Origin: Chloroflexota bacterium
GTDB lineage: Bacteria; Chloroflexota; Dehalococcoidia; Tepidiformales; Tepidiformaceae
NCBI GenBank assembly: GCA_026710655.1
Contig: JAPOQN010000001.1
Coordinates: forward strand, 186,001 to 250,000
Direction of reading: 5' to 3'
Length of the DNA stretch: 64,000 nucleotides
The position numbers and the translations under genes are program-made. Shown in pieces: positions 45,476 to 62,913 of this stretch. Under the pieces are notes generated by a model. That model made no database searches. It was not told where the DNA came from and saw only the letters and a list, made by a program, of their open reading frames with translations. Positions within the stretch are counted from its first letter, which is position 1; the number at the start of each line of letters is the position of its first letter.

Positions 45476-46156
45476 CCAACCTGCTCTTGTCGTTGTACCC
45501 GGATTCGCTAGCGCAAGTCACTCGCAGTTTCGGTTCAACGTTGGCCTTGCCGCCACTGCTGGTTGCCGGACGCCCGAGATCACTGAGTCTCTTGACGCTG
45601 ACCAATCATACCCCCGTTCCGACCGACAATTGCCACGGGGATCAGTGGGCTTGCCGCCCCACCCAAGAGCCGAAGTCATGGGGTGCCCCTGCAATGCCCT
45701 CGGGCTCAATGCTGGACAAGCAGCCTAACCTCTACCAGTGAAGCAGAGGCCGCTAGTCGCTGGTATCGATAGAAACGCCTGGTCCGGAAGTCCAAGACGT
45801 GCCCTGCCCTGTGTCGTCAGGTGACCGAGTTACACGTGTGGGTCGGTTCACCTAACTTCGAGCCACTCTTGTCAGACGATGCAGATCGTCGACGCAGGTG
45901 CTCCCGAACGTTCATCTGCGCGAGTATCCGCAGCCCCGCCTCGAGCGTCTCGCGCTGTTCCGGCGTGTACGTGTTCTGTGTTGCGTCGTCCATGCTTCTG
46001 CACCCCGGTTTGGGCTTGCCAGTGTTCCCGCGCATCGGAGGACGCGTAAGGTCCCGGGGGGTCCCGGATGAACCCCGTGGCGGTAGACCCCGCCAGCGGC
46101 CACAATGTGGCCTCCGTCACCCTCAGGTGGCGGAACGCATACGAGACTGGAATTAC
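45476..46156. other. 681-bp divergent intergenic region between STAND gene and hsdM
   Basis: It should hold promoters for both the STAND gene and the hsdM operon, but no clear -35/-10 pair was found by eye. One small minus-strand open frame at 45817-45993 may be real. An open frame continuous with hsdM reaches back to 45821 but is not protein-like there. Confidence 0.5.
45817..45993 (-). CDS. Small hypothetical protein
   Basis: The 58-residue product begins MDDATQNTYTPEQRETLEAG and continues LRILAQMNVREHLRRRSA, a charged amphipathic helix with a basic tail. Many accessory regions carry short proteins of this kind near recombinases or defence genes, but no family can be assigned. The upstream in-frame ATG at 46035 would give 72 residues. 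It is kept because the composition is plausible for a helical protein; it could equally be a chance frame. Confidence 0.3.
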   Translation of the reverse strand: MDDATQNTYTPEQRETLEAGLRILAQMNVREHLRRRSASSDKSGSKLGEPTHTCNSVT

Positions 46157-48259: not shown

Positions 48260-48262
48260 CGC

Positions 48263-49666
48263 ATGACCCAGGACTCAGAATCCGTTGAGACGCGCCCGGC
48301 ACCGCCGCCCCTCAAGGTGGTCGAACAAGAGCCCGATCCCGAGAACCCCTGGGCCGACGACGTGCTCGAACGCAAGCAAGTCGCCGAACGCCTGACCAGG
48401 ATCATTGAGGGTCAGGAGGTGCCGTTCGTCATCAGCGTCGATGGGCAGTGGGGGACGGGGAAGACGTTCCTGCTCAAGCGCTGGCGACAGGACCTGGAGA
48501 ACCATGAATGGCAGGCCATCTACTTCAATGCGTGGAAGGACGACTTCTCGGATGATCCACTGCTCGCGATCATCGGCCAGCTCTCTGACTACTTCGACGA
48601 CGGTGCCCTGAAGCAGCTGGCGCTGGCGGTGGCTGGCGCGGCTCTGGCCGTCCTTACAAAACACCTCACAGGGACTCCGGTGACGCTTGAGGATCTGAAG
48701 CCTGAAGGGCTGTTAGCGGGCTACCGCGAACAGCACAAGACGAAGGACCTCCTGAAGGATGAGCTAGCTAGCCTGGCCAGTGCGGTCAAGGATGAGACGG
48801 GCCAGCCCGTCGTGTTCATCATCGACGAGCTCGACCGGTGCCGCCCAACCTTCGCGATCGAGCTCCTTGAGCGTGTCAAGCACATCTTTGACGTGCCCAA
48901 CGTCGTGTTTGTCTTCGGCATCAATCGGAGCGAGCTCGTGGAGTCGCTCCAATCGGTCTACGGGGAGATCGACGCGGGTATCTATCTGCGGCGGTTCTTC
49001 GACATGGAGTTAGTCCTTCCCGAGGCAGATATAGAAAAGTTTTGCATGTGGCTGTTCGACGTATTTGGGATAAAGGTCTTTCTGGATGAGATGTCTCGAT
49101 ATGCAGGGAACAGAGTTCATAGTGATGAATTCCACGAGATGACTCTGCACGCACCACCATTGTTTCGAGCCCTTAGTCTGTCGCTCCGTGACATTGACCA
49201 GATTGTGAGGTTAATTGCACTTCTTGGGAAGACACTTGAACCGCAATACTACATCTACCCTCCACTATTAGCTTCGCTCTTATCTCTCAAGATCATCGAT
49301 CGCGAGCTCTACAAACAATTCATCCATAGAGAGTGTAGCGCAGGGGCAGTGATGGATTGCTTTGAGCAGAAATATCCCGCACTATCAGCCCGTGTCAAAG
49401 CAGAAGAGAATGTGTTGAAGCGCATAGAACTCAGCCTGTACTGCGTGGAGGCAGGACCTGCATGGGAGTACCTTACTGACCCTTCCATTCGTGGGGAGCC
49501 TGATTCCGTGCCCGAGAACGCGTTCTCGCGAAGAACCCAGGCGGATAGGGGACGGCTCAACGAGTTACTCAAGGATGCTGTTGGCTTCTTCGGAACCAAG
49601 AGGATGAACAGAACGAGCCTCGCCCATATCGCCAAGATGATCGATCTCTACCAGGCCGGCGCATGA
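48263..49666 (+). CDS. KAP-family P-loop NTPase embedded in type I RM operon
   Basis: The 467-residue protein is a KAP NTPase: Walker A VDGQWGTGKTFLLKRW (Gly61-Thr68), the family motif IYFNAWKDDFSDDPL, an inserted hydrophobic helix ALKQLALAVAGAALAVLTKHL that may touch the membrane, and Walker B with the KAP signature VVFIIDELDRCRP near 184-196, followed by VFVFGINRSELVESL. It starts 3 bp after hsdM and its stop overlaps the hsdS start (ATGA), so it is translated as part of the RM operon. The 3' half (about 49020-49460) is visibly AT-richer than the 5' half. KAP proteins are known in phage-exclusion systems (PifA-type), so an accessory defence role is likely. Confidence 0.87.
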   Translation: MTQDSESVETRPAPPPLKVVEQEPDPENPWADDVLERKQVAERLTRIIEGQEVPFVISVDGQWGTGKTFLLKRWRQDLENHEWQAIYFNAWKDDFSDDPLLAIIGQLSDYFDDGALKQLALAVAGAALAVLTKHLTGTPVTLEDLKPEGLLAGYREQHKTKDLLKDELASLASAVKDETGQPVVFIIDELDRCRPTFAIELLERVKHIFDVPNVVFVFGINRSELVESLQSVYGEIDAGIYLRRFFDMELVLPEADIEKFCMWLFDVFGIKVFLDEMSRYAGNRVHSDEFHEMTLHAPPLFRALSLSLRDIDQIVRLIALLGKTLEPQYYIYPPLLASLLSLKIIDRELYKQFIHRECSAGAVMDCFEQKYPALSARVKAEENVLKRIELSLYCVEAGPAWEYLTDPSIRGEPDSVPENAFSRRTQADRGRLNELLKDAVGFFGTKRMNRTSLAHIAKMIDLYQAGA

Positions 49667-50967
49667 ACACCTCTCCTTACCCCACCTACCGCCCCTCCGG
49701 TGTCGAGTGGCTCGGAGATGTGCCGAAGCACTGGAAGGTGAGGCGGCTGCACTACGTCTGCCGGTTTGCATACGGGGATTCCCTCCCATCGGAGGCCCGC
49801 GAAGATGGCGAAACGCCGGTCTTCGGCTCCAACGGACCGGTCGGAACGCATGATGAGCCCAACACCTCCGCGCCGGTCATCGTGGTAGGCCGCAAGGGCT
49901 CGCACGGCGAGGTCAATTACAGCAAGGATGCGGTGTTCGCGATCGACACAACCTACTTTGTTGACGGGAGATACACCGACTCTGCGCTTCGCTGGGTCTA
50001 CTACGCGCTGCTCTGCGCGGACCTCGGAGATGTGTCGAAGGACTCGGCCGTTCCTGGGCTTTCTCGAGAAGATGCCTACGGGAAGCGCCTCCCCCTCCCG
50101 CCACTCGACGAGCAGCGCGCCATCGCCGTGTTCCTCGACCGGGAAACGGAGCGCATCGACGCACTCGTCGCGAAGAAGCGACAGCTCATCGAGCGGCTGC
50201 AGGAGTACCGGATCGCGCTCATCACCCGCACCGTGACCCGCGGCCTCCCGCCCGACGCCGCCCGCGCCGCCGGCCTCGCCCCGTCACCCCGCCTCAAGCC
50301 CTCGGGCGTCGAGTGGCTCGGCGATGTGCCGGAGCACTGGGAGGTGAAACGGCTCAAATGGTCGAGTCCAAGATCGATCAATGGCGTCTGGGGCGACGAG
50401 CCGGACGGCGAGAACGACATGGTGTGCGTTCGGGTTGCGGACTTCGATCGGCGCCAGTTCCGAGTCATCCTTGACGACCCAACGGAGCGAGCGATCACTG
50501 GGGCCCAGCGTTCTGGACGTGAGCTTGAAGTAGGAGACCTCCTGCTCGAGAAGTCAGGCGGAGGTGAGAAGCAGATGGTGGGCTGCGTCGTGCATTACGA
50601 CCACGACGAAGCAGCTGTATGCTCAAACTTCATTGCCCGCCTCGCCGTGGCACCCCGGCAACACCCTCTCTTCTGGACGTATGCGCACGCCGCTCTATAT
50701 GCCGGCAAGCTGAACTACCCTGCCATCAAACAGACAACCGGGATACAGAACCTTGACTCTGGTGCGTACTTCGACACCCCCGTGGCCTTCCCGCCACAAG
50801 CTGAGCAGGTGGCCATAGCGAGCTTCCTGGACCAAGAGACGGGGGCCGTCGATAACCTCACGAGTCGGGTAGAAGCTGCGATGGAGCGCCTCCAAGAGCA
50901 TCGCACTGCGCTCATCACCGCGGCCGTCACTGGCAAGGTCGATGTGCGAACACGACCGCCGACCTAA
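49663..50967 (+). CDS. hsdS: Type I restriction-modification specificity subunit HsdS
   Basis: HsdS sets the bipartite DNA target. The 434-residue protein has two target-recognition domains, each introduced by the same box: SGVEWLGDVPKHWKVRRL (about 8-25) and SGVEWLGDVPEHWEVKRL (about 210-228). Each domain is followed by a conserved helical spacer: PPLDEQRAIAVFLDRETERI with RLQEYRIALIT, and PPQAEQVAIASFLDQETGAV with RLQEHRTALIT. This internal pseudo-symmetry is typical of a full-length HsdS. The start overlaps the KAP stop by 4 bp. Confidence 0.94.
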   Translation: MNTSPYPTYRPSGVEWLGDVPKHWKVRRLHYVCRFAYGDSLPSEAREDGETPVFGSNGPVGTHDEPNTSAPVIVVGRKGSHGEVNYSKDAVFAIDTTYFVDGRYTDSALRWVYYALLCADLGDVSKDSAVPGLSREDAYGKRLPLPPLDEQRAIAVFLDRETERIDALVAKKRQLIERLQEYRIALITRTVTRGLPPDAARAAGLAPSPRLKPSGVEWLGDVPEHWEVKRLKWSSPRSINGVWGDEPDGENDMVCVRVADFDRRQFRVILDDPTERAITGAQRSGRELEVGDLLLEKSGGGEKQMVGCVVHYDHDEAAVCSNFIARLAVAPRQHPLFWTYAHAALYAGKLNYPAIKQTTGIQNLDSGAYFDTPVAFPPQAEQVAIASFLDQETGAVDNLTSRVEAAMERLQEHRTALITAAVTGKVDVRTRPPT

Positions 50968-51020
50968 ACCCGCGTCAGCAGGGGGGAGGCCGCGCTGCCT
51001 CAATCACCAAGGAGCAAGAC

Positions 51021-51740
51021 ATGGCCGACGTTCGGAAATATCACGAAGACTTGGACAAGCTCATCGCGCTTGGGAACGATGTGGGGAAGTCGCTTGATGC
51101 AATCCGCACCAGCCTGACTGGCATTCCCGATACCACAAGGTCTTATCAGAAGTGGTATACGGAGTCGTCCAGATTTATTGGGCAGGTGCTTCCTGAACGC
51201 TCCGAAGAGTTCAAGGAAATGTATTCAGGAGGAAGCGGTGGGACAATCCCATACTACCTAAGTTGCATCGAAGAGGGAGAAAGTCTTTCAAAAATCTATT
51301 CCCAATCCGTGTCAAACCGGTTTAGAACGCAATTGCATATTTTGGAGTCCGCCAAGTCAGTATTTACAAGCTCACTCTTCGACATTAGGGCCCTCGCTCA
51401 AGCTAACCTCTTCGACTCAGAGCTTGATGCCGCAAATGAGCTGTGCCGAAACGGTTTTCTCCGGGCCGCAGGGGTCGTTGCAGCGGTGGTGTTGGAGCGG
51501 CACCTAGGGCAGGTGACTGAGAATCACAACCTTCCGGTGAGCAAGCAGAGTCCAACGCTCGGTGACTTCAATGAACTCCTGAAGAAGGAGGGCGTGGTGG
51601 ATGTCCCGGCCTGGCGACAGATCCAGCGGCTGGGCGACCTCCGTAACCTGTGCGCCCACAACAAGGAACGGGAGCCTACGAAGGAAGAGGTCGACGAGCT
51701 CATCGAAGGGGCGGACAAGTACACGAAGACTCTGTTCTGA
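51021..51740 (+). CDS. HEPN-like protein within type I RM operon
   Basis: The 239-residue protein has an N-terminal helical half (YHEDLDKLIALGNDVGKSLD) and a C-terminal HEPN-like half: LDAANELCRNGFLRAAGVVA, VVLERHLGQVTE, then LGDLRNLCAHNKEREPTKEE with the R-x4-H motif Arg208-His213 (RNLCAH), followed by a long helix. This resembles DUF4145/abortive-infection HEPN proteins, many of which are metal-independent RNases. It lies 53 bp after hsdS on the same strand. Its DNA between about 51120 and 51420 is AT-richer than hsdS or hsdR, suggesting separate acquisition. RNase activity is inferred; a structural or antitoxin-like HEPN role is also possible. Confidence 0.65.
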   Translation: MADVRKYHEDLDKLIALGNDVGKSLDAIRTSLTGIPDTTRSYQKWYTESSRFIGQVLPERSEEFKEMYSGGSGGTIPYYLSCIEEGESLSKIYSQSVSNRFRTQLHILESAKSVFTSSLFDIRALAQANLFDSELDAANELCRNGFLRAAGVVAAVVLERHLGQVTENHNLPVSKQSPTLGDFNELLKKEGVVDVPAWRQIQRLGDLRNLCAHNKEREPTKEEVDELIEGADKYTKTLF

Positions 51741-51775
51741 AAGAACCATCGCCAAGGTCGATGTGCGGGACGCGG

Positions 51776-52156
51776 CTACTGCTGCGGCCGGTCCTGCCGA
51801 ATAGCGGCCTTGACTTCCTGGGGTGTCAGCGGCGAGTCGAGTGCCCCTTGCCGGATCCGCGCGAGGAGCTGCGAGCCAAGCGGCTCTCGCATCGTGTAGG
51901 TCCGGTTCTCAACTCCCCGGCGGAGCCATTCCAGGCTGGTAAGGGACGAGTGCCGGTAGGAGATGCACGAGTCACGCCGAGGGTATGGATGCTCTCCCGG
52001 CGGCACCACCACGCACATCTCGCCGCACCTGCGGATCTCCGGGTCATGGGTCGTGAAATTTGCAACGGCGACATCCCCGTTAGGGGTTTCGGCGGTCAGC
52101 ACCATCGAGAGGTGGCCACCTGCGTCCAGCCCGAAGAACGTATCTCCGGGATTCAC
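51776..52156 (-). CDS. Putative SH3-barrel (MazF/PemK-like) toxin paired with Panacea protein
   Basis: The 126-residue protein begins MNPGDTFFGLDAGGHLSMVL and continues NGDVAVANFTTHDPEIRRCG, CVVVPPGEHPYPRRDSCISY, a strand-rich pattern like small SH3-barrel nucleases of the MazF/PemK type (P-G-D start, G-H-x-x-V-V-L, NFTTH). The GTG start overlaps the stop of the upstream Panacea gene by 4 bp (52153-52156), the usual arrangement of a toxin-antitoxin pair. It lies on the minus strand between the HEPN gene and hsdR. Family assignment is by eye and uncertain. Confidence 0.5.
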   Translation of the reverse strand: MNPGDTFFGLDAGGHLSMVLTAETPNGDVAVANFTTHDPEIRRCGEMCVVVPPGEHPYPRRDSCISYRHSSLTSLEWLRRGVENRTYTMREPLGSQLLARIRQGALDSPLTPQEVKAAIRQDRPQQ

Positions 52157-52704
52157 CGGGCCGCGGCCGCGTGTGTCCGCAGCTTGTAGGTTGTCGCGGC
52201 CTGGGCCGCGGCCGTCGCGACTTCCTCATCGCTGAACCCCGCGAAGCGAAGGATGTCCTCGGGCTCGATCTGGGTGGCGCTCGCGCCCGGGTCGGTCCAC
52301 TCCGGCAGGGCGTGGGTGCGAGTCACGACATCGGGCCACTTCTCGTGGCCACAGGAGTCGAAGATGCTCCGCAGCACGTCTTCGTCGTACTCGGAGAGAT
52401 GGTCGGACGTGGGGGAGCCAACAAGCACGGCGTCGTAGCCCTCGCGCGCGATGTAGCTGTGCCAGACGGAATCCTCGGCCGGGTTGGGTTCCTTGACCAG
52501 ATCGAGCACACGACTGAGCACGGGGCCGTACTTCATGGAGACGAAGCGGTCGCCCGTGATTGGCAGACCGGTTTCGATGAGGGCCTCGCGGTCGGCAAGG
52601 TAGAGCAGCTTGATCAGCTTGATGTAGGGCATGCGCCGGTCATGCCGGTCGAGCAGGAGAGACGCGGCCTGCGCCGCCTTGCGCTCATCGAAGAAGAATT
52701 CCAT
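52153..52704 (-). CDS. Panacea-domain (SocA/DUF4065-like) antitoxin
   Basis: The 183-residue protein matches the Panacea domain: AQAASLLLDRHDRRMPYIKL followed by IKLLYLADREALIETGLPIT, the segment GDRFVSMKYGPVLSRVLDLV, and LSEYDEDVLRSIFDSCGHEK. Panacea proteins are versatile antitoxins that neutralise many toxin folds when encoded next to them, which is the case here with the overlapping downstream gene. It is divergent from hsdR with a 213-bp gap that should hold promoters for both. Alternative roles as a SocA-type proteolytic adaptor are possible. Confidence 0.82.
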   Translation of the reverse strand: MEFFFDERKAAQAASLLLDRHDRRMPYIKLIKLLYLADREALIETGLPITGDRFVSMKYGPVLSRVLDLVKEPNPAEDSVWHSYIAREGYDAVLVGSPTSDHLSEYDEDVLRSIFDSCGHEKWPDVVTRTHALPEWTDPGASATQIEPEDILRFAGFSDEEVATAAAQAATTYKLRTHAAAAR

Positions 52705-52917
52705 GGCAGTACCCTACCCCCGCTCCCTGCCAGTGTGGCACCGAAAACGCCGTGCGCCAACGGTCCGCGCCACTCAGCCTGTGGGGCTACAGAAGTCGGA
52801 AGCGCTATGCTGAGCCCTCTGCAGGTAGAGCCTGGAGCCCGTATGGGGCCTAGCACGACCGATAGGGAGTAGACGTGGCATTCGCGCAGGCAGGCGCCTG
52901 GCGGCCACCGACCAACC

Positions 52918-55900
52918 ATGACGAGCCAGACGAACGAGGCAGCCTTCGAATCCACCGTTGAGTCGATGCTGCTTGGCGGTGGATGGCGCCAGGGCGACCG
53001 TTCGGAGTGGGATGTCGACACCGCCATCTTCCCTGCCGACGCCCTCGCGTTCATCCGCGACACGCAATCGGAACTCTGGGCCGACATGGTCGCCCTCCAC
53101 GGCGCGAACCTCGACTCCGCCATCACCCAGACGCTGGTCAAGGAGCTCGACCTCAAGGGCTCGCTGCACGTCCTCCGCCACGGCTTCCGCTTCTCCGGCA
53201 AGACCTTCCGGCTCGCCTACTTCAAGCCCGCCTCTGGCCTAAACCCCGACGCGCTCGCGCGCTTCGAGCGCAACGATCTGACGGTCACACGGCAGGCACG
53301 GTGCCACCCGGGCGCAGGCGACGAGGTCGACCTCCTCTTCGCGCTCAACGGCGTGCCTGTCGCCACCTGCGAGCTGAAGAACCCGATGACCGGCCAGACG
53401 TGGCGCAATGCGGTCCGCCAGTACCAGCAAGATCGCGACCCGAACGCGCCCCTCTTCCGCTTCCAGAAGCGAGCCCTCGTCCACTTCGCCGCCGACCCGG
53501 AAGAGGTCCACATGACCACGCGGCTCGCCGGCGAGGCGACGCGCTTCCTCCCCTTCAACCGCGGCAGCAATCCCGGCGCCGTCCAGTGTGGGAAGGGCAA
53601 TCCGCAGCATCCCTCGGGCTACCGCACCGGCTACTTCTGGCAGGAGGTGCTTAAGCGGGAGCGTTTCCTCGATATCCTCGGCTCCTACGTCTTCCTCGAG
53701 ACCCGCGAGGAGAAGGTCGATGACGCGAAGGGCGCACGGACAGAGAAGCGCGAGTCGGTCATCTTCCCGCGCTACCACCAGCTCGACGCCGTCAGCAGCC
53801 TCGTCGCCACTGCCGCCGAGGACGGCCCCGGACGCAACTACCTCATCCAGCATTCCGCCGGCAGCGGCAAGACGAACAGCATCTCCTGGCTCTCCCACAG
53901 GCTCGCGAGCCTGCACACCGCCGCCGACGAGAAGGTCTACGACTGCGTCATCGTCATCACCGACCGTCGCGTGCTCGACCAGCAGCTCCAGGACGCCATC
54001 TACCAGATCGAGCACGCCCAGGGCGTTGTGAAGGCCATCGACGAGGACTCGCAGCAGCTCGCCAGGGCACTCGTGGACGGCACGAAGATCGTCATCACGA
54101 CGCTGCAGAAGTTCCCGTTCGTCCTGAAGGGACTCCTGACCATCGCCGGGGCATCCCCGTCCGAGAGTCCTACGGAGGCCGAGCGATCCCAGGCGGTCGA
54201 GTGGCGCCGCGAAATCGCGGGTCGCCGCTATGCCGTCATCGTCGACGAGGCGCACTCCAGCCAGACGGGCGAGACCGCACGCGAGATGAAGGCCATCCTG
54301 GGGTCGCGAGCCCAGACGGACGAAGAGCCGGAGGACTGGCAGGACGGCCTCACTGCGATGGTCGAGTCACGCGGTCCGCAGCCCAACCTCTCGTTCTTCG
54401 CCTTCACGGCCACTCCCAAGGGCAAGACCGTCGAACTCTTCGGCCGCCCTGGTCCGAGCGGCAAGCCGGAGCCCTTCCACGTCTACAGCATGCGCCAGGC
54501 GATCGAGGAAAACTTCATCCTCGACGTGCTCCAAAACTACACGGACTACAACACCTACTACCGCATCGCGAAGCAGGCTGCGGACGACCCCGACGTCCCC
54601 AAGCGCCGCACGGCCGTCGCGCTGGCCAAATTCATGACCCTCCACCCCCACAACATCAGCCAGAAGACCGAGGTCATAGTCGAGCACTTCCGCGAGCACG
54701 TGCGACACCGGATCGGCGGCCGGGCGAAGGCGATGGTGGTCACAGGGTCACGGCTCCATGCCGTCCGGTACATGCAGGCCTTCGAGCGCTACATCGAGGA
54801 GCATTCATACGACGACATCCGGCCGCTCGTCGCCTTCAGCGGGACCGTCACCGACCCCGACACCGGCCTCGATTTCACCGAGCCCGGCATGAACACAGAC
54901 ATCGTGACGGGGAAGCCAATAAGCGAGGCCCGGCTCCCAGCCCGCTTCGCGTCGCCCGACTACCAGATCCTGCTCGTGGCGGAGAAGTACCAGACCGGAT
55001 TCGACCAGCCACTGCTGCAGGCCATGTATGTCGACAAGCGGCTGGACGGTGTGCAGGCCGTGCAGACGCTGTCGCGCCTCAACCGGGTCGAGCCCGGCAA
55101 GGAGGCGCCCTTCGTCCTCGACTTTGTGAACGACCCCGAGGACATCAGCACCGCCTTCGCCCCCTACTACGACCGCACGCAGCTGCTGGAGGCGTCGGAC
55201 CCGTACCAGCTTGAGCAACTGAAGCACGAGCTCGACGGTTTGCAGGTCTATCACGTGAGTGAGGTGGAGACGTTCGCCAGGGTCTTCTACGTGCCCCTGT
55301 CGCGACAGCAGCCGGGCGACCACGCCCGCATCGAGGAGTGCCTACAGCCCGCTCGTGACCGCTTCCACACCCTTGACGAGGACGGCCAGAACGAGTTTCG
55401 CGACCGGCTCAGCGCGTTCGTGAATCTCTACTCGTTCCTCAGCCAGATCATCCCGTACGGGGACAGCGAGCTGGAGCGCCTCGCCTCATTCGGGCGCCTC
55501 CTCCTCCCTTCCCTCCAGCCAGCCCGGGATGGCCCCGTCGACCTCGGTGACGACGTGACTCTTGAGTACTACCGCCTGGAGCACGTGCAGACCTATGCTG
55601 CCTTCTTCGAGGATCAGGAGGTCTACGTCACAAGCCCGCGTGCCGTGGGCACCGGCAGCCCGGAGGAAGAGAAGGCGCCGCTCTCGGAGATCATCGACCA
55701 GCTCAACGAGCGGTTCGGCACCAACTTCACCGACGAGGACCGCCTCTTCTTCGAGCAGGTCAAGGAGCGCGCCCTCCGCGACGAAGACGTGCGCCAGATC
55801 GCCGTTGCCAACCCCTTCGACAAGTTCAGCCTCGGCATCCGTGAACGGGTGGGCCAGATGATGGTCGAGCGCATGGGCGAAAACGACGCGCTCGTCACCC

Positions 55901-55989
55901 GCTACCTGAGCGACACCGACTTCCAGGAGATCGCCTTCGCCGTCCTCGCCCGCGAGATATTCCAGGCGGTCGAGGCGGCCGGCCGCTAA
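52918..55989 (+). CDS. hsdR: Type I restriction endonuclease subunit HsdR
   Basis: HsdR translocates and cuts unmodified DNA. The 1023-residue protein starts MTSQTNEAAFESTVESMLLG, then a RecB-type nuclease domain with DEVDLLFALNGVPVATCELKN (Asp and Glu-x-Lys near 137-154), SF2 helicase motif I HSAGSGKTNS near 312-320, motif II VDEAHSS near 441, motif III FFAFTATPKGKT, and helicase domain 2 with VVTGSRLHAVRYM and ILLVAEKYQTGFDQP. It ends with a helical domain. All catalytic motifs are intact. It is separated from hsdM-hsdS by the HEPN gene and the opposite-strand toxin-antitoxin pair. Confidence 0.95.
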   Translation: MTSQTNEAAFESTVESMLLGGGWRQGDRSEWDVDTAIFPADALAFIRDTQSELWADMVALHGANLDSAITQTLVKELDLKGSLHVLRHGFRFSGKTFRLAYFKPASGLNPDALARFERNDLTVTRQARCHPGAGDEVDLLFALNGVPVATCELKNPMTGQTWRNAVRQYQQDRDPNAPLFRFQKRALVHFAADPEEVHMTTRLAGEATRFLPFNRGSNPGAVQCGKGNPQHPSGYRTGYFWQEVLKRERFLDILGSYVFLETREEKVDDAKGARTEKRESVIFPRYHQLDAVSSLVATAAEDGPGRNYLIQHSAGSGKTNSISWLSHRLASLHTAADEKVYDCVIVITDRRVLDQQLQDAIYQIEHAQGVVKAIDEDSQQLARALVDGTKIVITTLQKFPFVLKGLLTIAGASPSESPTEAERSQAVEWRREIAGRRYAVIVDEAHSSQTGETAREMKAILGSRAQTDEEPEDWQDGLTAMVESRGPQPNLSFFAFTATPKGKTVELFGRPGPSGKPEPFHVYSMRQAIEENFILDVLQNYTDYNTYYRIAKQAADDPDVPKRRTAVALAKFMTLHPHNISQKTEVIVEHFREHVRHRIGGRAKAMVVTGSRLHAVRYMQAFERYIEEHSYDDIRPLVAFSGTVTDPDTGLDFTEPGMNTDIVTGKPISEARLPARFASPDYQILLVAEKYQTGFDQPLLQAMYVDKRLDGVQAVQTLSRLNRVEPGKEAPFVLDFVNDPEDISTAFAPYYDRTQLLEASDPYQLEQLKHELDGLQVYHVSEVETFARVFYVPLSRQQPGDHARIEECLQPARDRFHTLDEDGQNEFRDRLSAFVNLYSFLSQIIPYGDSELERLASFGRLLLPSLQPARDGPVDLGDDVTLEYYRLEHVQTYAAFFEDQEVYVTSPRAVGTGSPEEEKAPLSEIIDQLNERFGTNFTDEDRLFFEQVKERALRDEDVRQIAVANPFDKFSLGIRERVGQMMVERMGENDALVTRYLSDTDFQEIAFAVLAREIFQAVEAAGR

Positions 55990-57081: not shown

Positions 57082-57516
57082 CTACTGGTTACGTACTCGC
57101 TGCGGGCCAGAACGACTTCGCACCGCCTCCTCGATTCGCTCGGCGACTCGGTCCACGTTCGAAAGAACCTCGTGCCCCCAAACCCGTAGGACAACCCAGC
57201 CGTCCCTTCGGAGCCGGGCAAAGTTCCGACGGTCTCGACGACGATTCTCTTCGATCTTGTTGATCCAGTAGGGAGAGAGCTTGTGCCTCCATGTTGGGAA
57301 TCTCCATCCATGCCAGAAGTCCCCATCGACGAACACCACAACCCGTGCGCCAGCGAAGACGATGTCAGGAGTGCCGGGAAGGCCTCGCGCATTCTTCCTG
57401 TAGCGGAGGCCTCGCGCGAACAGAGCCCGGCGCACCGCTATCTCGATCCCCGTGTCTTTGCTGCGGACACGAGACATTAGGCGACTGCGCTGGTGGGGGG
57501 TTAGCGAGTCTGTCAC
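57082..57516 (-). CDS. vsr: Very short patch repair endonuclease (Vsr)
   Basis: Vsr nicks 5' of T:G mismatches made by deamination of 5-methylcytosine. The 144-residue protein has the family start TPHQRSRLMSRVRSKDTGIE with the catalytic Asp in SKDT, RYRKNARGLPGTPDIVF, the core VVFVDGDFWHGWRFP, and a C-terminal VVLRVWGHEVLSNVDRVAER helix. It starts with GTG one base after the stop of the upstream dcm gene, so they are cotranscribed; pairing with a C5 methyltransferase is the classical setting. In Vsr-like restriction systems the enzyme can also act as the restriction nuclease. Confidence 0.93.
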   Translation of the reverse strand: MTDSLTPHQRSRLMSRVRSKDTGIEIAVRRALFARGLRYRKNARGLPGTPDIVFAGARVVVFVDGDFWHGWRFPTWRHKLSPYWINKIEENRRRDRRNFARLRRDGWVVLRVWGHEVLSNVDRVAERIEEAVRSRSGPQRVRNQ

Positions 57517-57517
57517 G

Positions 57518-58696
57518 TCACCGAGTTTGCGTCGCTAACTCGGCGTTGTCGACGTACTGCCGAAGCGATTGGAGGAAGCCTTCCTCGAAGCGCAAAGAAC
57601 TCGCGCTCGCACGTTTGAGAAACCCTGCTGCCGCCCGCTGCGAGAGTGGTGTTCCATCTTCACGCAAGAAGTGGCTGAGCAGTCGGTACTTGCGTTTCAG
57701 AGGCCAAGCGGAGACGGGCACCGAGAACCGCTGACCCTCTCCACCTCTAGCTGCAACTGGCCACTTGGAGCCGTTCGGCAGGTGGGCTTCACCTGCTGGC
57801 CGAAACACTCCAGGGTGTCGGATCCTCCGCCCGAGCCACTCCGCAACGGGAACGCTGACCGCATTACCGACGAGCTTCCAGCGCGCCCCTTCCGACTTGG
57901 CTGCCGCCGTCCAGCCTCGGCGGAAGCCTTGGAGTGCTTCCGCGTCGCGAATGTTGGGAGTGAAGAATCTTGGTCGGTCTCCATCGCCCTCACGAAGCCA
58001 GACTGCCGGCGGTGAGGCAAGACCGAGCCCTGAGCCGCTCTTTAGTGGTGGCACACCCTCGTCAGTCCACCCGACGCCGCGGTTTCCCTCGGTCCAATAG
58101 AAGCCCGCCATCCCTTCGCTTCTGCTCTCGGTTGGTAGTCCACGGTCGTCTGCCAGCAGTACGCGGGCAGGGTCGACCGTGCGGGATGCGAAAAGAAAGA
58201 CCCGACGTCGGCGTTGGGGTAGACCAAACGACCGGGTGTCGACGATGCGATAGGCCCACCGGAAACCTAGACCCTCGATGCGTTCGATTATTGTTGTCAT
58301 TGCCTTGCCGTGATCGAGCGACAGCATGAAGGGAACGTTCTCAAGGATCACGTCCATCGACGGGTCGGAAGTGTGCAGCAGACGAAAAACCTGGTCGATG
58401 AGTCCGGACTGAGGCCCAACGATTCCTTTAGTCCGCCCGGCCTGGCTGAGATCCGCGCAGGGAAAGCCGGCAGCGAGTAGGTCCGTCGGCGGTAGCGCCT
58501 CAAGGTCGTGGACGTCGCCGACCAGTCGAGCCTCGGGGAATTTGAGCGCTAGTACCGAACGAGCTTCCGAATCTGTCTCGCACAGCATGGCAGCATGGAA
58601 TCCGGCGCGCCTGAACCCGACTTCAAACCCCCCAATGCCCGCGAACAGGCCTATCGCGGTCTGAGGCTTGGAGTCGAACACTCTATTCCCCATCAT
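57518..58696 (-). CDS. dcm: DNA C5-cytosine methyltransferase
   Basis: The 392-residue protein transfers methyl groups to C5 of cytosine. Motif I is AIGLFAGIGGFEVGFRRAGF, motif IV is AAGFPCADLSQAG with catalytic Cys80, motif VI ENVPFML near 119, motif VIII GLPQRRRRVFLFA, and motif X KLVGNAVSVPVAEWLG. The variable target-recognition region lies between VIII and X. A basic C-terminal tail of about 90 residues follows motif X and is unusual in length. The start is the ATG ending at 58696; an upstream in-frame ATG at 58735 gives 13 more residues without a ribosome-binding site. Confidence 0.93.
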   Translation of the reverse strand: MMGNRVFDSKPQTAIGLFAGIGGFEVGFRRAGFHAAMLCETDSEARSVLALKFPEARLVGDVHDLEALPPTDLLAAGFPCADLSQAGRTKGIVGPQSGLIDQVFRLLHTSDPSMDVILENVPFMLSLDHGKAMTTIIERIEGLGFRWAYRIVDTRSFGLPQRRRRVFLFASRTVDPARVLLADDRGLPTESRSEGMAGFYWTEGNRGVGWTDEGVPPLKSGSGLGLASPPAVWLREGDGDRPRFFTPNIRDAEALQGFRRGWTAAAKSEGARWKLVGNAVSVPVAEWLGRRIRHPGVFRPAGEAHLPNGSKWPVAARGGEGQRFSVPVSAWPLKRKYRLLSHFLREDGTPLSQRAAAGFLKRASASSLRFEEGFLQSLRQYVDNAELATQTR

Positions 58697-58844
58697 TTGC
58701 CCAACCGCTCGAGCATATGAACAGTAAACTAGCATGTGGAGGTGGCTAACGGCGAGCCGCCAGGCGGGCCAGCCAGCAGCCGCTGTAGGGTTGTCGGCGG
58801 AGGCAAGGAGGGTCAGAAGCTCCGACCAGGGGAGGTTGACAGCA

Positions 58845-58927
58845 CACTGCAATCCTTGCCGTTGCGATCAGGGAGCCGCGGCCGCCGGGCTCTGCCCGGA
58901 GTGGTCTCACTGGAAAGGATTGCAGTG
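58845..58927. repeat. Long inverted repeat between the sensor-like genes and dcm
   Basis: CACTGCAATCCTT (58845-58857) and AAGGATTGCAGTG (58915-58927) are exact reverse complements, 57 bp apart. The loop holds a second perfect stem, CCGGGC-TCT-GCCCGG (58885-58899). The right arm is also the end of the upstream coding region (codons for HCNPF). It could fold as a terminator or attenuator separating the kinase-like module from dcm-vsr. Confidence 0.65.
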
Positions 58928-59548
58928 TAGTTCTTTCATATCCTGCTTTAGCGACGGATAAGCATTACCCACAATCTTCACCAGCTCATCCAAGCCGTAG
59001 ATACTGATGTACGCCGCCAAAATGCAGTGAATCCCCCCGGATTTCCCATCCAGCGGGAAGGACGGCTGGGTTGTTGGGATCCAATTTGGTGCCTCAGGAA
59101 GGGGAACCCTCTTTCCGTCGAAGCTAGTAAAGGAGGTTACGTGTTGACAATGCAGCATTTTATGCGAACCGCGCCCATATTCGAATCGGTATCCAATCGA
59201 TTCCCCCTCCTTCCCCTTATGGAAGAGCGCAACTTGCACCTTCACTGAGGAACTTCTCTTAGTGACCTTAGCATCGACAGCCATAAGTGGCAGTATGTGC
59301 TGTTCTCTTCGAGGAGACCGCAAATATAGGTACTGTCCGTCTCGAACCATAGACAGGTTCACTGTGTCCTTACGAACACTGATCCTGTCCTCGAAGTAAT
59401 CATCCTGAGCAACGCTGAATGGAAATGCTAACCTCTGAACGAGGGATTCGATGTTCTGTAACTCTGTATCGTCTGGCCGAATGGCGGACGTCAGCTGTAT
59501 GGCACTCAAGAGGTCCCTCAGGGCTGTCCGCTCGTCACTAGTGCCCAC
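58907..59548 (-). CDS. Protein of unknown function, third gene of kinase/receiver/Dcm cluster
   Basis: The 213-residue protein begins with GTG (MGTSDERTALRDLLSAIQLT) directly after the stop of the receiver-like gene. Helical N-terminus (about 1-50), then a strand-rich part (DDYFEDRISVRKDTVNLSMV, GQYLYLRSPRREQHILPLMA, VKVQVALFHKGKEGESIGYR), and a C-terminal helical part, SGGIHCILAAYISIYGLDEL. No catalytic motif or known family is recognised. There are two cysteine-containing segments (LHCQHV, GIHCIL, ELHCNPF) but no clear metal-binding spacing. Its position suggests it is an effector or adaptor of the upstream signal pair. Confidence 0.7.
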   Translation of the reverse strand: MGTSDERTALRDLLSAIQLTSAIRPDDTELQNIESLVQRLAFPFSVAQDDYFEDRISVRKDTVNLSMVRDGQYLYLRSPRREQHILPLMAVDAKVTKRSSSVKVQVALFHKGKEGESIGYRFEYGRGSHKMLHCQHVTSFTSFDGKRVPLPEAPNWIPTTQPSFPLDGKSGGIHCILAAYISIYGLDELVKIVGNAYPSLKQDMKELHCNPFQ

Positions 59549-60736
59549 TTAGTCTAGCCTAGAAGCAGGGGTGTACTCAACGTTCTTATCGGGCTGCTCT
59601 ACGTAACGTAATCTGAAAGGGCTGTCTGTGGCGGGGACAAAGCGCCTACTATCCCCAGGCAGCGTGAAGCGTGAGCTGTCCTCTGCGAACGTCCAATCCA
59701 ACTCCCTTCGCGACCAGGGGCTATCAACCTCCTCGATGCTAGAGTCTGCAGAGAGGCTGTGCCAAGACCAGCAGTGCCGACCGACCCACTCCCATCCGGT
59801 GAAGTGGTGATTGGTAATCCGGCGATTGCGAATTCCCAGCCGTTGGATGTGGCCTGCTAGGGACGCTGTGCGGTTCCAAGACTCAAGCGCATCAGGATCG
59901 GTCAATAGGCTCGGAAAACGCGATACCAGGTGTGGCGCGTCGACCAATGTGTCTTGGCGGGGCAATACGACATTGGTGAGCCACTTCGTAACTCTGGCGA
60001 CCGCTATGCGGGCGGCCCACAAGTCGTCCGGGACTTTGTCGGAGGCGGCCAAGCCAATCGGGCTTTCTTCGACAACTTGCCGAAATGTGATCGTGCCGGC
60101 TTCCCCGCGCCCACCCAAGTAGCGAGCCACCTGGTCGGAGAATCTCGATGCCGCGCTCTCATCAAAACCAAGGTATTGCAGAACGTTCTTATCGAGCTGT
60201 TTAGCAACTGCTCGGACTAGCCGCTTCCGGGTTTGTACCGCCTCCGGGACAACCGGCCAGGCCCAAGGTCGGTATTCAGGGAAAGAGTGTGACCACAGCC
60301 CGGCGTTACCGACCTGGTAGCTTCCGATGTCCAAGTCAGCGAACGAGTCGAGGCGCCCCGACAAGTTGAGGTCAAACCTATTCGTCCCGAATTGATTCAT
60401 GACCATGATGAAGGACACCGAGGAGTAACAACGGGCCAAGTACGCCAACCTGGCGCCGGTGGTGTCCCCATGGTCTCCAAAGTCGAGGAGGTCGAAGTCG
60501 ACAACCAGGACGTCGGCGCCATCCAAAGGGAACTGGCCGGTCGGCCACTCTGTCCCCTCACGCGCCGCCTGCCGCCGACGATGCAGCATGGTGACGATAC
60601 CGGAGAGTTCGTCGTCGTCCTTCAAGATGACGTGGATATTAGGTGTATCTAGCCCTCCATCAACGAAGCCCTTGACGATCTGACTCTCCCATCGGCTCGC
60701 CTGTTCCGGCTTGTCGTCCAACAGGATGACTTTCAC
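59549..60736 (-). CDS. Receiver-like protein with unknown C-terminal domain
   Basis: The 395-residue protein starts VKVILLDDKPEQASRWESQI, a receiver-domain beginning with the acidic pair Asp7-Asp8. After an unusual helical insertion (about 40-70) comes VLVVDFDLLDFGD, where Asp80 is at the phosphoacceptor position, then YSSVSFIMVMNQFG where receivers have their Thr/Ser strand; the conserved Lys is not evident. Residues about 150-395 (QVGNAGLWSHSFPEYRPWAW, HHFTGWEWVGRHCWSWHS) match no family I know and are rich in Trp and His. GTG at 60736 with GGAGGG 6 bp upstream was chosen over the earlier GTG at 60760. It starts 2 bp after the stop of the histidine-kinase-like gene. Confidence 0.7.
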   Translation of the reverse strand: MKVILLDDKPEQASRWESQIVKGFVDGGLDTPNIHVILKDDDELSGIVTMLHRRRQAAREGTEWPTGQFPLDGADVLVVDFDLLDFGDHGDTTGARLAYLARCYSSVSFIMVMNQFGTNRFDLNLSGRLDSFADLDIGSYQVGNAGLWSHSFPEYRPWAWPVVPEAVQTRKRLVRAVAKQLDKNVLQYLGFDESAASRFSDQVARYLGGRGEAGTITFRQVVEESPIGLAASDKVPDDLWAARIAVARVTKWLTNVVLPRQDTLVDAPHLVSRFPSLLTDPDALESWNRTASLAGHIQRLGIRNRRITNHHFTGWEWVGRHCWSWHSLSADSSIEEVDSPWSRRELDWTFAEDSSRFTLPGDSRRFVPATDSPFRLRYVEQPDKNVEYTPASRLD

Positions 60737-60738
60737 AG

Positions 60739-62913
60739 CTATCCCTCCTGTTCGTCCCATGCGATCTCACATGTCGTGCTGAAGCCTTCGCGGGGCGGGA
60801 TGAACCGGACACTGGTTGACGCGCTCTCGCAAATGATCTTCACAATAGTTAGGCCGAGGCCCATCCCTCCAAGCCCAAGCTGCCGTCTGTCGCGGGAGAT
60901 TTCAAGGCGCCGCTGAAAGGGCTCGAACAGTTCCTCTGCCTCCTCCAAGTCAACGCCCACTCCGGTATCGCTGACCAGCAGGGAGACTCGAGGTCCTTTC
61001 TCAGTCGAGGCTATCTGAAGGTGCTTCACACGATTGTCGAGCATCGCGTTTGAAGCGTTCATCAGCAGATTCTGGAAGACAGAAGACCACGCGGCGTAGC
61101 TGGCAGCAGGCATCACTAAGTCATCGTTCAACCACTCTAGGTCTAATCGAACTCCTCTCAGCAGGTCCCCGAGGCGAACTTGAAGATCGAGGAGCAGAGG
61201 CTTGAGCACAAACCGGCGCTGCTCGGTACGGTCCACTTCTTCCCGCAGCGGGGCGAAAATGGCTAGGAGGTCGCGTGTATTGCTTACCCAAGCGGCTAGG
61301 TCAGAGGCGGGTTGACGCATGCGGTCGCTGATGTGGCTGAGCTCTCCCAGGTCGTCAGACAAGGCTTCAAGGGTGTTGAACTGGTGCCGCATCTCGTGGT
61401 CGATGGCTAAGGCCGATATACCGGCAGTAGCGAGCGATGCAAGGAGTGCTGACTCACCTCGCTGTTGCGCTGCGGTGTTCTTGACAAAGTTGATCGCCTT
61501 CGTCAGTTCCGACTCGACTTCTTGCCTGGCTCGCTCGGGAATCGAGGCACTGTACTTGTCGAGGAGAGCGGCAATTCGTTCCCCGAAGTCCGCAGGCGTG
61601 ACTGGAGCGCGGCGCAGTGTCGTTTGTAGCTGGTTCCAAGCCGTTCGGTGGGCGTAAAAGTCAAGCGCCCAGCGGACCGCATAACGAAGTTGTTCAAGGG
61701 CTTTGTTGTCAACGAGGCGATCGCGCGAGATCTGGATTTCCAGCCGATCCTCAAGTTCGGGGGGCCGGTCGCTGGCTACTCGGCGCTCCGTTGCTGTGTC
61801 GATGTTCACGACTCCCCAGAGACGGCTATTCGTTGGAAGGAAGTTGAGGCCGTTGGCAACGTTGAGGTTAGGAGGGAGGAGCCGAGAACGCGACAGGCGG
61901 TGGGCGTGATCGAACTCCAGCCGGAGCCAGTCCGACTCTGGGCCGCCGAGGGGAATCCGGAATCCCGCATCGTAGATGTGAGCCCCCCCGTACTCCCGGA
62001 AGTATTCCCGGGCCTCCCCGACCTTGATTCCGTAAGCCTGCTTCCCCTCAAGCTTGAATATCCTGAGCTCGAAATCGAGCTCGCCAATGAGGCAACGCTC
62101 TATCGTGTAGGAGGTTGACTCTTGGCTTCCATCTCGATGCTCAAGGGTAAGAGAGACAGTCGCTTCGTAGTCATTGGACTCGTCACCAGGGTCAGTGATT
62201 GCGCCGATTAGGCGGGCATCCCACAGTTCTAAGGCCCGCGTCAGCTGCCCCTCAAATGCCGCAGTTATGGAGGTGTCTGAACTCCGAAGGTTGATCTGGA
62301 AACGGGACGACGGATCCGAAGCCAGCGTAGAACGGAAGGGGGGTTGGAGAGACCACACTTCCCGGGCCAGTTGCTCGAAGTCACGAGGGGACCACTCGTG
62401 ACGCAGGCCGACCAGAGTGACAGACGTTCCCGAGGCGGCCCCTCCGGCGAATGACATGGTTGGCTCGACTTCGTTGTAGCGCGCCATCGCATGCGTCAAC
62501 TCGCCTGCGCTCGCGGCCTCGGACCAATCCACCTCAACCTGAAGGGCTGAGTGCGCCCGGTCGCCGGCATAGGTGGTCACTTCAAGCTGTTCTGCCAGGA
62601 GTTGGGTAGCCAGCCGTCCGACGCCCTTGGAACCGGTCAAGGGTCGGTGAAGCGTCGGCGACTCGCGTTCCGCTTCCTTGTGTGGGGATCCGATTCTCAT
62701 CCACCTGTCGCGGAACTCCGCAAGTGTCATGCCGACCCCGTCGTCCGAAACAACGATGCAGTCACCCGTGAAGTCAACATTGACCAAGTTTGCGTCAGCG
62801 TCGTAACTGTTCTTGATCAACTCCGCCAGAGCGACGTACGGCTTCCCGACGAGCCTCTCTCCCAGCTCGCGAATGAGGCGGGAGTCAACGGTGAAGTGGA
62901 TTTCAGCGCTCAA
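60739..62913 (-). CDS. Dual-GHKL protein: Hsp90/MutL-like ATPase plus histidine kinase
   Basis: The 724-residue protein combines two GHKL ATPase modules. The N-terminal one is Hsp90/MutL-like: ALAELIKNSYDADA (Asn35), VSDDGVGMTLAEF (Asp58) and TGSKGVGRLATQLLA (94-105). The C-terminal one is a histidine kinase: H-box-like IDHEMRHQFNTLEA (His506), N-box FQNLLMNASNAM (Asn615, Asn619), G1 DTGVGV near 649, and G2 GGMGLGLTI near 682. The middle (about 170-490) is a strand-rich Hsp90-like second domain then helices. No membrane segment is seen, so it is cytoplasmic. It starts with TTG and lacks a strong ribosome-binding site. MutL/Hsp90-type ATPases linked to Dcm and Vsr are known from the restriction-linked families described by Iyer and Aravind; the added kinase and receiver make this one distinctive. 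Confidence 0.82.
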   Translation of the reverse strand: MSAEIHFTVDSRLIRELGERLVGKPYVALAELIKNSYDADANLVNVDFTGDCIVVSDDGVGMTLAEFRDRWMRIGSPHKEAERESPTLHRPLTGSKGVGRLATQLLAEQLEVTTYAGDRAHSALQVEVDWSEAASAGELTHAMARYNEVEPTMSFAGGAASGTSVTLVGLRHEWSPRDFEQLAREVWSLQPPFRSTLASDPSSRFQINLRSSDTSITAAFEGQLTRALELWDARLIGAITDPGDESNDYEATVSLTLEHRDGSQESTSYTIERCLIGELDFELRIFKLEGKQAYGIKVGEAREYFREYGGAHIYDAGFRIPLGGPESDWLRLEFDHAHRLSRSRLLPPNLNVANGLNFLPTNSRLWGVVNIDTATERRVASDRPPELEDRLEIQISRDRLVDNKALEQLRYAVRWALDFYAHRTAWNQLQTTLRRAPVTPADFGERIAALLDKYSASIPERARQEVESELTKAINFVKNTAAQQRGESALLASLATAGISALAIDHEMRHQFNTLEALSDDLGELSHISDRMRQPASDLAAWVSNTRDLLAIFAPLREEVDRTEQRRFVLKPLLLDLQVRLGDLLRGVRLDLEWLNDDLVMPAASYAAWSSVFQNLLMNASNAMLDNRVKHLQIASTEKGPRVSLLVSDTGVGVDLEEAEELFEPFQRRLEISRDRRQLGLGGMGLGLTIVKIICESASTSVRFIPPREGFSTTCEIAWDEQEG

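What the first reader, a model, noticed from the sequence alone, without database searches (positions are those of the whole stretch)
57082..62913. Candidate new system: dual-GHKL histidine kinase, receiver-like protein, unknown protein, Dcm and Vsr
Seen: five minus-strand genes in a row, the first three spaced 0-2 bp apart. The first encodes an Hsp90/MutL-like ATPase and a complete histidine-kinase core in one soluble protein; the second has a receiver-like start (DD pair, Asp80) and a novel C-terminal domain; the third is unknown; the last two are a C5 methyltransferase and a Vsr nuclease. Established: MutL/Hsp90-type GHKL ATPases occur in restriction-linked operons with Dcm and Vsr, and some bacteria use two-component-like relays in defence. 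Inference: the kinase-receiver pair gates an effector or the Vsr nuclease when unmodified or mismatched DNA is sensed.
Basis: partly seen in the sequence, partly recalled or inferred. Interest (0 to 1): 0.82.

Follow-up and report, generated by a model that had tools for sequence, protein, structure and literature searches.

The report
Kinase-relay trio riding with DNA methylases
Five neighbouring bacterial genes encode a DNA methylase, a Vsr-type nuclease and a kinase-receiver-third-protein trio that recurs as one unit in unrelated bacteria, and the trio is predicted to be a phosphate-relay switch that would act against foreign DNA.

Summary
In detail: KIN (724 aa), REC (395 aa), X3 (213 aa), a C5 methyltransferase (Dcm) and Vsr, all on the minus strand. 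In 18 REC-seeded genome loci KIN adjoins REC in 18, X3 is found in 16 with a profile chosen by sequence alone, Dcm in 16, Vsr in 9. Distances for KIN, REC and X3 track each other (r 0.80-0.89) but follow Dcm weakly (0.19-0.30) and Vsr not at all (the contrast is smaller with genome loci only). Distant relatives sit beside adenine-type methylases without Vsr. Relatives ride on tailed-phage contigs and plasmids. The kinase His and receiver Asp are conserved, and REC models as a receiver.

A related pair, HEF_HK/Response_reg_2, was published in 2021 (PMC8011034). The window proteins match neither Pfam model; a second locus in the same genome matches both. So this is a separate class of a known kind, with an extra partner, X3, whose confident model matched no solved fold.

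Best reading: a methylase-linked defence module in which the kinase likely phosphorylates REC to switch X3. Function is untested. Vsr is probably a companion of Dcm, not the effector.

The parts
60739..62913 (-). KIN: soluble dual-GHKL kinase, 724 aa (TTG start)
   Evidence: HATPase_c_3 E 4.5e-25 and HATPase_c E 7e-16; 2158 relatives scored at E <= 0.001
62491..62835 (-). KIN N-terminal MutL/Hsp90-type ATPase (residues 27-141)
   Evidence: PF13589; E31, N35, D57, G59, G61, G94 28 of 28; best NCBIfam neighbour BbrUII/HgiDII restriction enzyme, 92.6 bits, far under its cut-off of 550
61396..61398 (-). His506, predicted phospho-acceptor of the kinase
   Evidence: 28 of 28 in A2; also present in 6 of 6 divergent or plasmid relatives aligned
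60772..61083 (-). KIN C-terminal histidine-kinase catalytic domain (residues 611-714)
   Evidence: PF02518; N615, N619, D649, G651, G653, G683, G685 28 of 28
59549..60736 (-). REC: receiver-like protein, 395 aa from the GTG start (longest open frame to 60760)
   Evidence: 95-row alignment A5; model pLDDT 95.0, pTM 0.94
60200..60736 (-). REC receiver-fold part
60497..60499 (-).
   Evidence: 94 of 95
58907..59548 (-). X3: third member of the trio, 213 aa, unnamed family
   Evidence: profile A3 finds it next to KIN-REC in 16 of 18 loci; model pLDDT 87.6
59144..59188 (-). X3 conserved residues R121, E123, H129, H133, Q135
   Evidence: of 27 rows: R121 25, E123 24 (Asp in the other 3), H129 24, H133 27, Q135 26
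57518..58696 (-). Dcm-type C5 methyltransferase (about 392 aa from the first ATG pair; longest frame to 58852)
   Evidence: PF00145 E 1.9e-43, TIGR00675 144.5 bits against a cut-off of 100.65
57082..57516 (-). Vsr endonuclease, 144 aa
   Evidence: TIGR00632 130.5 against 97.85 bits; aligned to E. coli Vsr 1cw0, E 2.3e-18

Best explanation
KIN, REC and X3 recur as one three-gene unit beside exchangeable DNA methyltransferases, and the unit is predicted to be a phosphorelay-controlled defence module in which KIN would sense unmodified or invading DNA, phosphorylate REC on Asp88, and so switch X3 on. Shown by calls: the gene set, its recurrence, the joint divergence of KIN, REC and X3, the weak link to Dcm and none to Vsr, the conserved His and Asp, and the predicted receiver fold of REC. 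Inferred: that phosphotransfer happens; that the signal is DNA and is read by the N-terminal MutL-like ATPase, perhaps with the methyltransferase as the part that recognises sequence; that X3 is the output (its conserved R-x-E and H-x-Q residues on neighbouring strands look like an active site); that the outcome is defence. Vsr most likely repairs deaminated 5-methylcytosine made by Dcm, its textbook role.
For: KIN adjoins REC in 18 of 18 REC-seeded loci, X3 in 16 (profile A3, chosen by sequence), Dcm in 16. Order KIN-REC-X3 held in all 24 loci where the three were located (in L012 with an insert before X3), while Dcm lay upstream, downstream, same strand or opposite. Distances: KIN-REC 0.89, KIN-X3 0.80, REC-X3 0.82 against KIN-Dcm 0.30, X3-Dcm 0.19, KIN-Vsr 0.06. 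Adenine-type methylases replace Dcm in L036 and L057-L059 by Pfam, and in L037 by likeness to L036. His506 28 of 28, Asp88 94 of 95, His in 6 of 6 divergent or plasmid kinases. Receiver fold. Five phage contigs carry KIN, REC, X3 and Dcm, with tail, endolysin or repressor genes beside them. The window locus lies between type I R-M genes and, just past the window, McrBC. Mechanistic precedent: VapK-VapS-VapC, a GHKL kinase, its substrate and a nuclease in one operon (PMC13373217, passages).
Against: No experiment exists. REC lacks the canonical receiver Thr and Lys: position 122 after strand 4 is Asn in 93 of 95, and no column from 138 to 157 holds Lys in more than 10 of 95, so phosphorylation may be weak or unused. 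X3 matched no family or fold, so calling it an effector is a guess. Part of the X3 count is circular: profile A4 was built from genes picked by position, so L011, L034, L036 and L037 rest on position and residue pattern. In L058 the third gene is not recognisably X3 and in L059 it is unrelated. With genome loci only, the contrast shrinks (KIN-X3 0.67, REC-X3 0.61 against REC-Dcm 0.42, KIN-Dcm 0.34). Distances of loci are not independent. Sampling the phylum found the system only in this genome (1 of 400).
Confidence: 0.5

Rival explanations
1. The pair is a regulator: KIN and REC sense a cell signal and tune expression or activity of the neighbouring R-M genes, as the 2021 authors speculated.
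For: Same architecture as HEF_HK/Response_reg_2, for which control of R-M systems was proposed (PMC8011034); soluble kinase.
Against: The part of REC after the receiver has no match to a DNA-binding family, and the trio travels with different methylases and diverges almost independently of them.
Confidence: 0.2
2. Guard or addiction module: the trio watches the methyltransferase and kills or stalls the cell when methylation is lost or blocked, for example by a phage inhibitor.
For: A methylase is nearly always beside the trio but its kind varies, which fits a guard that does not read sequence.
Against: Nothing tested here shows toxicity of X3 or REC; overlaps with the best explanation.
Confidence: 0.15
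3. No relay: KIN works as a MORC/MutL-type DNA clamp, REC is a scaffold with a receiver-like fold, and REC plus X3 do the cutting.
For: REC lacks the canonical Thr and Lys; paraMORC ATPases act with nucleases in R-M contexts (PMC2292703); VcSduA couples a GHKL domain to a nuclease (PMC12137116, passages).
Against: A complete second kinase domain with its His and the acidic triad of the receiver are kept even at 17-18% identity.
Confidence: 0.1
4. One reading: the relay gates the Vsr nuclease.
For: Vsr is present in the window and in 9 of 18 loci.
Against: Vsr was not found in five adenine-type loci, nor in L010 and L015 although both have more than 6 kb on each side; its distances do not follow KIN, REC or X3. 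The Vsr-Dcm correlation is 0.37 overall but 0.07 in genome loci only.
Confidence: 0.05

Closest known systems
HEF_HK (PF19191) / Response_reg_2 (PF19192) two-component-like pair, Bellieny-Rabelo et al. 2021 (PMC8011034)
   Same: HATPase_c_3 plus His-box plus HATPase_c kinase, adjacent receiver-like protein, C5 methylase, often Vsr, soluble proteins.
   Different: Window KIN and REC match neither Pfam model, while the pair on contig C23 of the same genome matches both. REC is about 400 aa against 551 in C23 and a 600-aa query in the paper, lacks the Thr and Lys that the paper reports, shows no profile similarity to the C23 receiver, and is followed by X3. In the one informative relative of the C23 type (L060) the receiver is followed by Vsr with no X3 hit.
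paraMORC/MORC ATPases of R-M systems, Iyer et al. 2008 (PMC2292703)
   Same: N-terminal GHKL ATPase in operons with Dcm and Vsr.
   Different: The passages read (parts 1-2 of 4, and a term search) mention no receiver or histidine-kinase core; no helicase is part of the trio.
VapKSC and CapK-CapS (PMC13373217, passages)
   Same: GHKL kinase, its substrate and a separate output in one operon; DNA-derived signal.
   Different: Those use STAS-domain substrates phosphorylated on Ser; no STAS match in KIN or REC. Here a His-box and a receiver are predicted.
Detocs (recalled, not seen in a call beyond a listing)
   Same: A two-component relay used for phage defence.
   Different: From memory, its output is a nucleosidase fused to a receiver; nothing like it was found here.
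Type II R-M with Dcm and Vsr
   Same: C5 methylase and Vsr.
   Different: No recognisable restriction endonuclease in the window locus; the ATPase/kinase trio is extra.

Membership tests
HEF_HK/Response_reg_2 pair | kinase matches PF19191 | tested here: not met
   no match at E <= 1 for window KIN; positive control P0248 from the same genome E 7.9e-29
HEF_HK/Response_reg_2 pair | receiver matches PF19192 | tested here: not met
   no match at E <= 1 for window REC; 0 of 95 members of A5 at E <= 0.1; positive control P0247 E 2.8e-32
HEF_HK/Response_reg_2 pair | HATPase_c_3 + His-box + HATPase_c architecture, receiver gene adjacent, C5 methylase near | tested here: met
   the KIN profile also aligns to the His-box region of P0248
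two-component system | conserved phospho-acceptor His with intact N, G1 and G2 boxes | tested here: met
   28 of 28 in A2; 6 of 6 further kinases keep the His, but L059 has D649N and G653A
two-component system | receiver fold with acidic pair and phospho-acceptor Asp | tested here: met
   predicted fold and residues; Foldseek alone had no hit at E <= 0.001, best NarL 3.3e-3
two-component system | receiver Thr/Ser after strand 4 and Lys after strand 5 | tested here: not met
   Asn122 in 93 of 95; no conserved Lys in columns 138-157
two-component system | PF00072 over its cut-off | tested here: not met
   1 of 95 members of A5 at E 0.0078; L036 and L058 receivers 16.8 and 16.2 bits against 30.2
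paraMORC | N-terminal GHKL ATPase motifs | tested here: met
   PF13589, residues 28 of 28
paraMORC | S5 domain after the GHKL domain | not tested
   no structure was predicted for KIN
Vsr endonuclease | TIGR00632 over its cut-off | tested here: met
   130.5 against 97.85 bits
Type II R-M | cognate restriction endonuclease | tested here: inconclusive
   X3 and the C-terminal part of REC matched no family and X3 no solved fold
VapKSC/CapKS | STAS-domain substrate | tested here: not met
   no STAS match in KIN, REC or X3
phosphorelay | His-to-Asp phosphotransfer | not testable with these tools
   needs biochemistry

The most novel reading that the evidence does not exclude
A methylase-agnostic restriction system run by a phosphorelay: one kinase-receiver-X3 core plugs into C5 or adenine methyltransferases, and X3 is a new kind of effector enzyme, with a fold not seen among solved structures, that is released or activated by phospho-REC when foreign DNA is sensed.
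Probability: 0.3. Interest if true: 0.85.

Novelty: new variant of a known kind. Interest (0 to 1): 0.6.

Why it matters
It would make a two-component phosphorelay the control core of a restriction-type defence, with the methyltransferase as an exchangeable part. That makes an open question testable, namely what the MutL/MORC-like ATPases in R-M operons are for, and it adds a partner protein (X3) of unknown fold to a pair that has stood as a sequence-only prediction since 2021.

Tried and rejected

Literature: PMC8011034 read in parts 1-5 of 7; its supplement was not available, and it lists uncharacterised neighbour groups (OG_20, OG_16, OG_24, OG_8, OG_294), one of which could be X3-like. PMC2292703 parts 1-2 of 4; PMC12137116, PMC13092281 (one figure legend naming HATPase and REC in predicted systems), PMC13373217, PMC12839542 and PMC8895600 as passages. 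Searches for prior description; word searches cannot find an unnamed protein.
Full report
The locus. Five minus-strand genes lie at 57082-62913. KIN carries an N-terminal MutL/Hsp90-type ATPase (HATPase_c_3) and a C-terminal histidine-kinase catalytic domain. The best NCBIfam neighbour of its N-terminus is the BbrUII/HgiDII restriction enzyme model, far under cut-off. REC and X3 match no Pfam, PADLOC or NCBIfam family at the limits used. Dcm and Vsr are ordinary by family score. Vsr has FVDGDFWH where E. coli Vsr has FTHGCFWH; window and L008 share this, while most of the other Vsr copies printed keep GCFWH.

Recurrence. A scan of 84,980 species genomes with REC alignment A1 gave 18 loci, from Chloroflexota, Acidobacteriota, Poribacteria, Latescibacterota and Pseudomonadota by their record titles (phylum names from general knowledge). 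KIN is next to REC in 18 of 18. X3 is found with profile A3, made from proteins picked by sequence, in 16 of 18; L011 has a short gene in the right place and L024 ends inside REC. A C5 methylase is within about 5.5 kb in 16 of 18 and Vsr in 9 of 18. In two loci Vsr and Dcm are one protein (L007, confirmed by Pfam; L019 by profile only). Missing Vsr is firm only in L010 and L015, with more than 6 kb on both sides; in the other seven misses one flank is about 2 kb or less.

A unit of three. In one search KIN, REC and X3 kept the same order in the 24 loci where the three could be placed, while Dcm stood upstream, downstream, on the same or the opposite strand. Tree distances were compared by Mantel test over up to 25 loci: KIN-REC 0.89, KIN-X3 0.80, REC-X3 0.82 (each p 0.0005); KIN-Dcm 0.30, REC-Dcm 0.24, X3-Dcm 0.19; KIN-Vsr 0.06, REC-Vsr 0.05, X3-Vsr -0.01; Dcm-Vsr 0.37. 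With genome loci only: 0.84, 0.67, 0.61 for the trio; 0.34, 0.42, 0.30 with Dcm; 0.01 KIN-Vsr; 0.07 Dcm-Vsr. X3 is as divergent as Dcm (median distance about 3.1-3.2 each), so saturation alone does not explain the low Dcm values. Shared host history would act on Dcm too.

Distant relatives. A KIN scan of viral contigs gave 25 loci. L030-L034 carry KIN, REC and Dcm in 5 of 5 and Vsr in 3 of 5. X3 is found by profile A3 in L030-L032, by a later profile in L033, and by position and residue pattern in L034. Phage genes beside them are tail tape measure, tail protein, endolysin or repressor; I take them as P2-like from memory. L036 and L037 hold a more divergent kinase, a 340-aa receiver and a third gene, with an N6-type methylase (Pfam for L036) and an origin-nicking protein beside L036. 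Plasmid searches gave REC in 2 of 72,556 records and KIN in 5. Of these, Mycolicibacterium and Ornithinimicrobium have trio and Dcm (the Ornithinimicrobium kinase gene is broken); Paraburkholderia has trio and an Eco57I-type methylase; the archaeon Halomicrobium has kinase, receiver, a third gene not recognisable as X3, and an N6 methylase; Clavibacter has kinase, receiver, an unrelated third gene and an Eco57I-like methylase just under cut-off. No Vsr was found in L036, L037, L057, L058 or L059.

Relation to the published pair. [quoted passage not shown] The window genome holds such a pair on contig C23, beside a Dcm and helicases, and it passes both Pfam models. The window's own pair passes neither, nor does any of 95 REC relatives pass PF19192 at E 0.1. 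The kinases are related over their N-terminal halves (hhalign probability 99.0, 371 columns) and weakly at the His box; the receivers show no sequence relation. So: same kind, different class. In a sample of 400 genomes of the phylum, each class was found in this genome only; the first look scored at most four candidates in the rows shown.

Mechanism. Shown: the unit, its residues and its company. Inferred: KIN reads a DNA state through its MutL-like ATPase; the methyltransferase marks self and may supply sequence recognition, which would explain why the trio need not co-diverge with it; KIN phosphorylates REC; REC switches X3. VapK-VapS-VapC gives a worked precedent for kinase, substrate and effector in one operon (PMC13373217, passages). 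Surroundings support defence: type I R-M genes and a Panacea antitoxin on one side, McrBC and a helicase-nuclease on the other. Nothing has been tested at the bench.

Verdict. A new variant of a known kind, with one truly unknown part (X3) and a clear set of tests.

Noticed in passing
L027 (contig C23, G000:C23:18000-30135): The same genome carries a second, published-type system: HEF_HK kinase (989 aa), Response_reg_2 receiver (551 aa), Dcm and helicase genes.
   Followed up: yes
window 58847-58925: An 11-bp inverted repeat spans the X3 stop codon and the gap before dcm (fold -38.2 kcal/mol, z -2.57); it could be a regulatory hairpin or a scar at the join between trio and methylase.
   Followed up: partly
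window 57082-57516: Vsr has FVDGDFWH in place of the E. coli-type FTHGCFWH, so its metal site and mismatch chemistry may differ.
   Followed up: partly
window 45821-55989: Type I R-M genes: HsdM, HsdS and an HsdR-like protein, with a KAP NTPase (48263-49666) between HsdM and HsdS and a Panacea antitoxin-like gene (52153-52704, minus) before HsdR.
   Followed up: partly
window 42722-45475: Minus-strand STAND-type ATPase (AAA_16/NB-ARC, with a TPR match just under its cut-off) of 917 aa.
   Followed up: no
L029:6234-9877, just past the window end: McrC with an AAA_5 McrB-like partner, a 5-methylcytosine restriction pair, lies close to a Dcm-bearing system; the two must tolerate each other's marks.
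   Followed up: no
L029:13399-17865: Helicase fused to a REase_MTES_1575 nuclease domain, 1488 aa.
   Followed up: no
L059:9532-10113: On a Clavibacter plasmid the X3 slot holds an unrelated 193-aa protein that looks PIN-like by eye; no library confirmed it.
   Followed up: partly
L012:11239-12771: A 510-aa minus-strand gene is inserted between REC and X3.
   Followed up: no
L007:5923-7638 and L019:6127-7845: Vsr and Dcm fused in one protein.
   Followed up: partly
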